From assembly GCF_002215035.1 (NCBI RefSeq), contig NZ_NKFP01000004.1, positions 993,726 through 1,057,725 of the forward strand: DNA of 64,000 bases, read 5' to 3'. Under the pieces are notes generated by a model. It was not told where the DNA came from and made no database searches. It worked only from the letters and a program-made list of their open reading frames with translations. The first letter of the stretch is position 1; each line of letters begins with the position of its first letter. Source of the stretch: Leptolyngbya ohadii IS1. Lineage in GTDB: Bacteria > Cyanobacteriota > Cyanobacteriia > Elainellales > Elainellaceae. The position numbers and the translations under genes are program-made. Positions 22,823 through 38,254 of this stretch are shown piece by piece.

Positions 22823-22911
22823 GTGGATGAGTGGATGGGTGGATGGGTGGATGGGTGGATGAGTGGATGGGTGGATGGGTGGATGGGTGGATGGGTGGAT
22901 GGGTGGATGAG
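22812..22911. repeat. 8-bp tandem repeat (GAGTGGAT/GGGTGGAT), about 12 copies
   Basis: Uninterrupted 8-bp units alternate between GAGTGGAT and GGGTGGAT over about 100 bp. The array contains the TGA stop (22820-22822) of the DUF2227 gene. A short relative on the opposite strand is seen at about 56130-56160 near pyrE. It is a strong candidate for copy-number variation by slippage. Confidence 0.9.
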
Positions 22912-36014: not shown

Positions 36015-36794
36015 ATGGCAATTCAAGCTGGGCAAGCCTTACAGGGCGGTAAATACACCCTCGATCAGCCTCTAGGACAGGGGGGATTCGGCATTACATT
36101 TAAGGCAACCCACCATTACCTGCATCGCGTGATGGTGATTAAAACCATGAACCCCGAACTGCGGCAGCATCCTCAGTACGCCAAGCTAGAGCAGCAGTTT
36201 CAGGATGAAGGACGACGGCTTGCCCTTTGCGTGCATCCCAACATTGTGCGCGTCAATGATTTCTTTATCGAGAACGGGGTGCCCTATCTGGTCATGGACT
36301 ATGTGCCGGGAAAAACCCTGGATGCCATCGTCCTCCCCAATGACCCCTTGCCGGAAGCGATCGCTATCCAGTATATCAGCCAGGTGGGAGCCGCTCTGGA
36401 AACTGTGCATCATAACGGACTGCTGCATCGGGACGTGAAGCCGCAAAACATTATTCTGCGGGAAGGCACCGATCAGGTTGTGCTGATCGACTTTGGCATT
36501 GCGCGGGAATTTACACCGGGAGCCACCCAGACCCACACCAGCATCATTACCGAAGGCTACGCGCCGATCGAGCAATACCTGCCCCAGGCAAAACGCACCC
36601 CCGCCACCGATGTCTATGGCTTAGCCGCAACGCTGTATGCCCTGCTGACCGCTCAGGTTCCCGTCTCGGCTATTCTGCGCGATCGTCAGCCGATGCCCGC
36701 CCCCCGTGATATCCGCCCAGAAATCACCCCCGCCACCAACCAAGCCCCGCCGACTGGAGTCCAACGAGCTGCGGCGAGAACAGGAATATCGTAA
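36015..36794 (+). CDS. Truncated Ser/Thr protein kinase (5' part of a broken gene)
   Basis: 259 codons, of which 242 are native. Kinase marks are intact: G-loop GQGGFG at 21-26, Lys43, catalytic loop HRDVKPQN with Asp140, IDFGIA with Asp159, and APE-like YAPIEQY. The native frame stops after ITPATN (codon ending at 36740), in the middle of the last kinase subdomain, where relatives continue with QAI and about 30 more residues. The remaining 17 residues come from a misplaced copy of the gene's own 3' region. The rest of the gene (membrane helix and C-terminal domain) is found at 37382-38254. Activity is doubtful without the final helices. The same layout could come from misassembly. Confidence 0.8.
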
Positions 36795-37174
36795 CGAGAT
36801 GGCAAGGGCGGAGGAAGCGAATCGGGCTGATGCGCTGCGAGGAGTGGCGGGAATTCCAGTAGGCACACGGGAGCGATCTGTGCTGGAGGCTCTGGGCGAA
36901 CCAACGGAACGTAATCCGGACGGCTACTGGAACAATACGCGCACCGCAATCTACAACGTTGTAGATTGCGGTGCGCGTATTGTTCCAGTAGCCGTCCGGA
37001 TTACGTTCCGTTGGTTCGCCCAGAGCCTCCAGCACAGATCGCTCCCGTGTGCCTACTGGAATTCCCGCCACTCCTCGCAGCGCATCAGCCCGATTCGCTT
37101 CCTCCGCCCTTGCCATCTCGTTACGATATTCCTGTTCTCGCCGCAGCTCGTTGGACTCCAGTCGGCGGGGCTTG
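36741..37174. repeat. 434-bp perfect palindrome (217-bp arms) inside the kinase gene
   Basis: The left arm (36741-36957) is a direct copy of 37750-37966, and the right arm is its exact reverse complement; the centre is CTACAAC/GTTGTAG. The inverted copy goes on past the palindrome to 37348, so 36951-37348 mirrors 37576-37973. No mismatch was found by base-by-base mapping of the ends and offsets. Confidence 0.92.
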
Positions 37175-37308
37175 TTTGTATCCCGATCGCCCCCCTCCGA
37201 ATTTCTGCCAGAGTTGAGCAAATCGCGGACAAATTCCGGCAAAACCCCTGTGGGTGCGTTAGGAGAGGCTTCAGGCGAAGGGGAAGCTTCAGGAGCGGGA
37301 GATTCTAT

Positions 37309-37378
37309 AGGGACAACCGCTTCCGGCGAGGGGGAAGGCTCGATCGAGCCTTCCCCCTCGCCGGAAGCGGTTGTCCCT
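37309..37378. repeat. 70-bp perfect palindrome (35-bp arms), second turn-around point
   Basis: Centred on CTCGATCGAG. The right arm (37344-37378) is a direct copy of 37581-37615. The sequence from 37379 on returns to the native kinase gene. Confidence 0.92.
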
Positions 37379-37381
37379 TGA

Positions 37382-38254
37382 GAAACTCCCCGCCCTGACA
37401 CTTCCCACTCCCCCCAAAAACGTGGACTCAACCCCAGGGCACTCCTCTTTCTGGGGGCTGTTGCGATCGCCGTTCTGTTGGGAATTGGTAGAGCCTTGTA
37501 TGATGCCCGACAGTCTCCTGATCTGGTAACGGCAGAGCAACCGGAAACAGTGGTGACAGCTCCTTCCCCTGAACCCTCGATCGAGCCTTCCCCCTCGCCG
37601 GAAGCGGTTGTCCCTATAGAATCTCCCGCTCCTGAAGCTTCCCCTTCGCCTGAAGCCTCTCCTAACGCACCCACAGGGGTTTTGCCGGAATTTGTCCGCG
37701 ATTTGCTCAACTCTGGCAGAAATTCGGAGGGGGGCGATCGGGATACAAACAAGCCCCGCCGACTGGAGTCCAACGAGCTGCGGCGAGAACAGGAATATCG
37801 TAACGAGATGGCAAGGGCGGAGGAAGCGAATCGGGCTGATGCGCTGCGAGGAGTGGCGGGAATTCCAGTAGGCACACGGGAGCGATCTGTGCTGGAGGCT
37901 CTGGGCGAACCAACGGAACGTAATCCGGACGGCTACTGGAACAATACGCGCACCGCAATCTACAACGTTGTGCCCGATCAGGTGACGCTGGGCTACATTT
38001 ACGACAAAGAGAGTGAGCGAATTCGCCAGACAGAAGCCTCCTTTGCCCAATCAGTTGATCCGGAGGTAATGCAGACGACCCTGGACGGAATGCTGGACGG
38101 CAAGCTGAATTCCGAGATTGAGGCAGGCTTGAGGTCGGTGCAGGAGCGTCAGACCAATCAGTTTTCTTTCCAGCGAGGAAACCTGGAGGGGCTGATACAG
38201 CGAAATGAGCGCGATCGGGTTTATATTGCGGTGTGGGAGAAGGATCTGCACTAA
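37382..38254 (+). pseudogene. 3' fragment of the Ser/Thr kinase gene: membrane helix, linker and C-terminal domain
   Basis: The frame is open from 37382, just after an in-frame TGA at 37379-37381; the first usable start codon is TTG at 37478. It begins with a basic Pro-rich segment, then a transmembrane helix (ALLFLGAVAIAVLLGIG). A Ser/Pro/Glu-rich linker follows, then a C-terminal domain (GIPVGTRERSVLEALGEPTE, TAIYNVVPDQVTLGYIYD, IRQTEASFAQSVDPEVMQTT, VYIAVWEKDLH) as seen in membrane-anchored cyanobacterial kinases. It has no ribosome-binding site or ATG and follows the inverted duplication, so it is most simply the tail of the kinase at 36015. The glycosyltransferase gene starts 13 bp later. 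Confidence 0.75.

What the first reader, a model, noticed from the sequence alone, without database searches (positions are those of the whole stretch)
36741..37378. Perfect 434-bp palindrome breaks a Ser/Thr kinase gene, with turn-arounds at two 10-bp palindromes
The 638 bp from 36741 to 37378 are built only from pieces of the same gene's 3' part: direct copy of 37750-37971, then inverted copy of 37973-37576, then direct copy of 37581-37615. The two switches sit exactly at ACAACGTTGT (37962-37971) and CTCGATCGAG (37576-37585), short palindromes present in the parental sequence. The kinase domain loses its last ~30 residues plus linker. This is the expected trace of snap-back template switching at hairpins. 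The zero divergence means a very recent event or an assembly/amplification chimera (such inversions are common artefacts of multiple displacement amplification).
Basis: partly seen in the sequence, partly recalled or inferred. Interest (0 to 1): 0.8.

Follow-up and report, generated by a model that had tools for sequence, protein, structure and literature searches.

The report
Stitched-in local copies: a genome-assembly artefact
The odd palindrome that breaks a kinase gene is most likely not real DNA but one of many stretches in this desert-cyanobacterium genome where local copies, forwards and backwards, were stitched in place of the true sequence, so gene losses read from this genome should be checked first.

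Summary
It is not private to this gene. In 2.06 Mb of the same genome I found 34 clusters of local copies, 26 with inverted or palindromic copies; the same scan found none in 400 kb of a congener and only 920-bp copies in 400 kb of a third genome. Copies are identical but for a few internal mismatches in five clusters. No pair lies more than 1,716 bp apart, junction overlaps pile up at 9-10 nt, and patches remove the start of the only dxr and the only purH found in the assembly, both complete in the congener. A photoautotroph could hardly live with that. Verdict: artefact of library or assembly, probably gap bridging that joined pieces on overlaps of about 9-10 nt; amplification chimeras fit less well. 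No reads could be examined.

The parts
36015..36740 (+). Remaining 5' part of a Ser/Thr protein kinase gene (Pkinase domain, C-lobe end missing)
   Evidence: Frame; Pfam PF00069 1-199/263; 90% identical to the congener's kinase part
36741..37378 (.). The 638-bp patch, wholly made of perfect copies of pieces of 37576-37971
36741..36962 (+). Patch segment 1: direct copy of 37750-37971
36741..37174 (.). Perfect 434-bp palindrome
36953..36962 (.). Junction overlap ACAACGTTGT, a 10-bp palindrome present in the source at 37962-37971
36953..37348 (-). Patch segment 2: inverted copy of 37576-37971
37339..37348 (.). Junction overlap CTCGATCGAG, a 10-bp palindrome present in the source at 37576-37585
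37339..37378 (+). Patch segment 3: direct copy of 37576-37615
37379..38254 (+). Remaining 3' part of the same gene: linker, hydrophobic stretch and conserved C-terminal domain, open from 37382 to the stop
   Evidence: matches in 20 of 40 genomes searched, this one counted among them; alignment A1
37576..37971 (+). Source of all patch segments, inside the 3' part of the gene

Best explanation
The block is not in the organism's chromosome as such. It is one of many patches in the assembly in which a stretch of real sequence was not recovered and was bridged by pieces of the immediate surroundings, in both orientations, joined on short perfect overlaps. Shown: the mosaic structure, its recurrence, the near-perfect identity of the copies, the short range, the 9-10-nt overlaps, the loss of coding sequence of two genes held to be essential. 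Inferred: that the true sequence exists in the cell, and that the joins were made by a gap-bridging step of the assembly (my preference, about two thirds of this probability) and not by chimeric molecules made in an amplification step (about one third).
For: (1) Recurrence: 34 clusters in 101 sources (the window and 100 stretches of 20 kb), 2.064 Mb, of this genome; 26 hold inverted or palindromic copies, 8 direct copies only. Same scan: 0 in 20 stretches, 400 kb, of the congener G001; 3 pairs in 20 stretches, 400 kb, of G003, each 920 bp long and without mosaic. (2) Near-perfect copies: a mismatch-tolerant scan of inverted copies in the first 81 sources shows them overwhelmingly identical; along 106 pairs with 19,236 exactly matching bases, interruptions by a few mismatches inside a copy were found in 5 of 34 clusters: L057, L072 (a single base), L111, L099 and L161. 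A long-running natural process would leave many older, diverged cases. (3) The only dxr found lacks profile positions 1-44 of 389 and the only purH found lacks 1-39 of 511, each cut inside a cluster; G001 has 1-383 and 1-511. That dxr (sole isoprenoid route) and purH (purine synthesis) cannot be missed is general knowledge. (4) 90 copy pairs, none further apart than 1,716 bp although any distance within a stretch was allowed. (5) 55 distinct junction overlaps: 9 nt 8 times, 10 nt 15 times, 11 nt 4 times, 6 and 8 nt never, 0-7 nt 12 times in all: a pile-up with a lower edge near 9-10 nt, as a merging rule would give. (6) Cluster spans are richer in G+C than random stretches (0.542 against 0.528; 6 of 1000 resamplings as high), and the lost linker is G+C-rich in the congener (0.61), as expected of sequence that reads failed to cover. 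(7) Perfect palindromes up to 1,020 bp (L156 9678-10697) stand in a genome that codes for SbcD, subunit of a nuclease that breaks palindromes in E. coli (title of a reference seen).
Against: The assembly is otherwise good: 8 contigs, completeness 100, contamination 0.58. Several genes beside clusters are whole: chlG 1-306/306, nicotinate phosphoribosyltransferase 5-447/451 and a photosystem I accumulation factor 1-156/157, rnc 10-216/219 and phaA 5-395/396, and one complete pdxJ next to its inverted twin. 12 of 55 overlaps are shorter than 8 nt, so the lower edge is not absolute. The few internal mismatches are not explained. No reads and no primary genome paper were available. Cyanobacteria may carry several chromosome copies (general knowledge), so an altered copy could coexist with intact ones. 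Some clusters (short hairpins in L050 and L094, direct-only pairs such as L099 and L161) may be natural.
Confidence: 0.93

Rival explanations
1. A subtype of the artefact: the patches are chimeric molecules formed during whole-genome amplification (multiple displacement amplification), where freed 3' ends prime on nearby strands, and they entered the assembly where coverage was low. Its probability is part of the 0.93 given to the artefact.
For: Published amplification chimeras are mostly inverted, local and joined at short complementary stretches (PMC1855051, parts 1-2 of 4 of the text seen; PMC5372508 and PMC4595205, passages), and artificial inverted duplications in an assembly built from amplified DNA are on record (PMC6218980, passages).
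Against: Overlap lengths: 11 of 46 overlaps of 1-15 nt are 8 nt or shorter, where the table of PMC5372508 predicts 28 (that table is for human DNA). Distances: none over 1,716 bp, whereas published ones run to over 5,000 nt. Direct copies are frequent: 35 direct pairs against 36 inverted and 19 palindromic ones, and 8 of 34 clusters are direct only, against 11 of 475 local direct chimeras in PMC1855051. An assembly in 8 contigs would be unusual for amplified DNA (general knowledge). The papers found on this strain were seen as listings only and did not show how it was sequenced.
Confidence: 0.3
2. A real, genome-wide burst of template-switch mutations, for instance during repair of breaks after desiccation, in a desert-crust strain that carries several chromosome copies.
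For: The strain comes from a desert soil crust (table row in PMC8619395); joins at 9-14-nt homologies and palindromes resemble polymerase template switching; intact copies could mask the broken essential genes; a few internal mismatches exist.
Against: Copies are nearly all identical, hence one very recent burst; dxr and purH truncated in the consensus; SbcD present; no such cluster in the congener sample; overlap lengths drop sharply below 9 nt.
Confidence: 0.04
3. A single, real and very recent snap-back rearrangement in this kinase gene.
For: Exact turn-arounds at two 10-bp palindromes; the 3' part of the gene is still an open frame.
Against: It is one of 34 like clusters; a single event would not explain the others.
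Confidence: 0.01

Closest known systems
Chimeras of multiple displacement amplification (Lasken and Stockwell 2007, PMC1855051)
   Same: Local, mostly inverted copies; joins on short complementary stretches; original sequence lost between the parts
   Different: Here overlaps centre on 9-10 nt and not on 6-7, no pair lies beyond 1.7 kb, and direct pairs are frequent (35 of 90)
Artificial inverted duplications in assemblies from amplified long reads (Pacasus paper, PMC6218980, passages)
   Same: Inverted duplications fixed in a published assembly
   Different: Here several segments of some tens to 700 bp are interleaved per patch, in a contiguous bacterial genome
Short-range template-switch mutations (PMC7954356, listing with start of abstract)
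   Same: Inverted local copy with a return to the original strand
   Different: Here are long, recurrent, nearly always identical mosaics, two of which cut genes held to be essential

Membership tests
Assembly or gap-bridging artefact | Same pattern at many unrelated places of one assembly and not in close relatives | tested here: met
   34 clusters in 2.064 Mb; 0 in 400 kb of the congener, three 920-bp pairs in 400 kb of G003
Assembly or gap-bridging artefact | Consensus incompatible with a living cell | tested here: met
   Only dxr and only purH found are truncated at the 5' end inside clusters; complete in the congener. Indispensability is general knowledge. Other genes beside clusters are whole
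Assembly or gap-bridging artefact | Raw reads do not support the patch | not testable with these tools
   No reads held
Multiple displacement amplification chimera | Overlap lengths peaking at 6-7 nt | tested here: not met
   Peak at 10 nt; 11 of 46 at 8 nt or less against 28 expected from the published table
Multiple displacement amplification chimera | Predominantly inverted joins | tested here: inconclusive
   36 inverted and 19 palindromic pairs against 35 direct pairs; two inversions in a row also give a direct copy
Multiple displacement amplification chimera | DNA was amplified before sequencing | not testable with these tools
   Sequencing method not found with the searches
In vivo template-switch mutation | Occasional events of varying age, tolerated by selection | tested here: not met
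   Copies nearly all identical; genes held to be essential are cut

The most novel reading that the evidence does not exclude
The patches are real: a desert-crust cyanobacterium went through a recent genome-wide burst of local template switching primed by 9-14-nt homologies, and the cells survive because intact chromosome copies coexist with the altered ones.
Probability: 0.04. Interest if true: 0.9.

Novelty: not a real feature. Interest (0 to 1): 0.17.

Why it matters
It gives no new biology, but it warns users of this genome: at about one cluster per 61 kb in the sample, extrapolated to roughly 130 in the assembly, genes appear broken or lost that are probably intact, dxr and purH among them, while the completeness score stays at 100. 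Gene-loss, palindrome, repeat and comparative desiccation-tolerance analyses based on it need checking. The scan used (identical local inverted copies, their overlap lengths and distances) is a cheap test for other assemblies.

Tried and rejected
Rejected: a private mutation of the kinase gene (recurrence); a mobile or regulatory inverted repeat (the sources are pieces of the same gene). Considered and only partly fitting: amplification chimera. A first search for named orthologues with the unaligned C-terminal part found no relative; the aligned domain gave 139, of which 80 were kept. An early guess from memory that the strain is Leptolyngbya JSC-1 was dropped: its published size is 7,866,824, while Leptolyngbya ohadii IS1 has 7,902,459, the size of G000. 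pdxJ looked truncated in one frame but a complete copy stands beside it, so it is not counted. The split thiO-thiG region (L085) was not followed up and is not counted. My first wording that all copies are perfect was checked and weakened: five clusters hold internal mismatches. I met no paper that reports these patches in the searches (listings only); a primary genome paper of the strain was not among the results.

Full report
What is there. Successive segments overlap by ACAACGTTGT and CTCGATCGAG, two perfect 10-bp palindromes that also stand in the source. 36741-37174 is a perfect 434-bp palindrome.

The gene. The left part, 36015-36740, codes for a protein kinase domain matched over 1-199 of 263 positions of PF00069; the frame stops inside the block. 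The right part is an open frame of 290 residues, 37382-38251, which follows a stop codon at 37379-37381, directly beside the junction, so the true right edge of the patch may lie a base or more further on. With that part as query 20 of 40 genomes searched, this one among them, have a match. In the congener G001 the gene is one frame of 620 residues; between the last shared kinase residues and the shared hydrophobic stretch it has about 300 nt with G+C 0.61. So about that much original sequence was replaced by 638 bp of local copies. G001 is Cyanobacteria bacterium FACHB-502: its contig 55 and record JACJNZ010000058.1 have the same length, 236,070, and the match lies at the same place. A paralogue of the kinase lies elsewhere in this genome.

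The genome. The window lies in an assembly of 7,902,459 bases in 8 contigs. A published table lists Leptolyngbya ohadii IS1, from a biological soil crust at Nitzana, Israel, with exactly 7,902,459 bases (PMC8619395, one passage seen). I take the window to be that strain; the match of size is the only basis.

The pattern recurs. I scanned the window and 100 stretches of 20 kb of the same genome (together 2.064 Mb, of which 7 kb are counted twice where two stretches overlap the window) for exact inverted copies of 40 nt or more, palindromes with exact arms, and exact direct copies of 80 nt or more, within 6 kb. There are 34 clusters, 26 with inverted or palindromic copies and 8 with direct copies only (the first 81 sources alone gave 27). 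The same scan in 400 kb of G001 gives nothing, and in 400 kb of G003 three pairs of 920-bp copies, which look like insertion elements. The controls are smaller than the sample, but at one cluster per 61 kb six or seven would be expected in each.

Identity of copies. A mismatch-tolerant scan of inverted copies in the first 81 sources shows them overwhelmingly identical (its counts are inflated because overlapping seeds within palindromes are counted repeatedly). A check made for this report followed 106 exact pairs, 19,236 matching bases, beyond their ends. Apart from trivial continuations at palindrome centres, copies resume after a few mismatches in L057, L072 (one base), L111 and, among the direct-only clusters, L099 and L161; L071 and L102 have only short unmatched centres of an inverted repeat. 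So copies are identical with few exceptions, not without exception. The first scan looked for exact runs and favours identical copies.

Range and joins. Among 90 pairs (36 inverted and 35 direct of 80 nt or more, 19 palindromic) the largest gap between copies is 1,716 bp, although any distance within a stretch was allowed. Of 55 distinct junction overlaps, 8 are 9 nt long, 15 are 10 nt, 4 are 11 nt, 16 are 12-30 nt, 12 are 0-7 nt and none is 6 or 8 nt; 8 of those of 6 nt or more are palindromes, seven of 10 nt and one of 12 nt. Only junctions whose two neighbours both have another copy in the cluster can be measured, and overlaps above 30 nt were not counted. The two turn-arounds of the finding are thus typical of this genome. 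Random joins would overlap by about a third of a base (calculation).

Genes held to be essential. Of the frames next to clusters I chose 50 for NCBIfam and 8 for Pfam, partly the same, besides the two kinase pieces; not every frame was given. Three searches of the whole genome followed. dxr: the assembly holds positions 45-383 of 389, plus an inverted internal copy of 60-139; G001 has 1-383. The congener's 3-kb dxr region searched against this genome gave no match for about the first 134 coding bases (in which 40 of 78 candidates were scored). purH: the assembly holds 40-511 of 511, G001 holds 1-511; a weak second match in both genomes belongs to another, long frame. Both cuts lie inside clusters (L078 14190-16284, L156 4053-4984). 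A third suspect, pdxJ, is complete beside its inverted twin, and chlG, nicotinate phosphoribosyltransferase, a photosystem I accumulation factor, rnc and phaA beside other clusters are whole. That dxr and purH cannot be missed by a photoautotroph is general knowledge, not tested here.

Explanation. A consensus without the starts of dxr and purH, with dozens of nearly identical local mosaics and palindromes up to 1,020 bp in a genome that codes for SbcD, does not describe a living chromosome. The patches are most simply places where sequence was missing and was bridged with pieces of the surroundings. Cluster spans are somewhat richer in G+C than random stretches (0.542 against 0.528; 6 of 1000 resamplings reach it), as is the lost linker in the congener. 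Which step made the joins is open. Chimeras of multiple displacement amplification are local and inverted (PMC1855051, parts 1-2 of 4 of the text seen), but their overlaps peak at 6-7 nt and their distances run to over 5,000 nt (PMC5372508 and PMC4595205, passages). Here 11 of 46 overlaps between 1 and 15 nt are 8 nt or shorter against 28 expected from the table in PMC5372508. Joins of 10 nt or less cannot come from collapse of a k-mer graph with usual word lengths (inference). A merging rule with a minimum overlap near 9-10 nt fits best, but the protocol is not known to me, and the 12 overlaps below 8 nt show that the edge is not absolute.

Limits. No raw reads could be examined; the assembly was sampled at 26 per cent, from contigs 4 and 6 only; a few clusters may be natural. 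Several chromosome copies per cell could hide real altered copies, so the biological reading is not excluded, only unlikely. Scattered N in what looks by eye like a 16S rRNA gene at the start of contig 4 and a run of 361 N in contig 6 agree with an imperfect consensus, though N may also be masking by the operators.

Noticed in passing
G000 contig 4, bases 618-1725 (L032): 64 scattered N within what looks by eye like a 16S rRNA gene, as if operon copies or two organisms were merged in the consensus, or masked.
   Followed up: partly
G000 contig 6, 12722-13082 (L092): A run of 361 N, either an assembly gap or masking.
   Followed up: no
L085 2435-4224 (G000 contig 4): A thiO-thiG-like fusion gene is split into two frames with a repeated part, at a direct duplication of 188 bp.
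   Followed up: no
L169 563-3040 (G000 contig 6): A complete TrkH-type potassium transporter gene stands beside an inverted partial copy of itself.
   Followed up: no
L072 around 4887, 5066 and 6781 (G000 contig 4): A long three-way mosaic is identical except for one base, the clearest internal mismatch inside a patch copy.
   Followed up: no
window 22823-22901: Exact direct repeats at shifts of 8 bp and multiples of it, a short tandem array.
   Followed up: no
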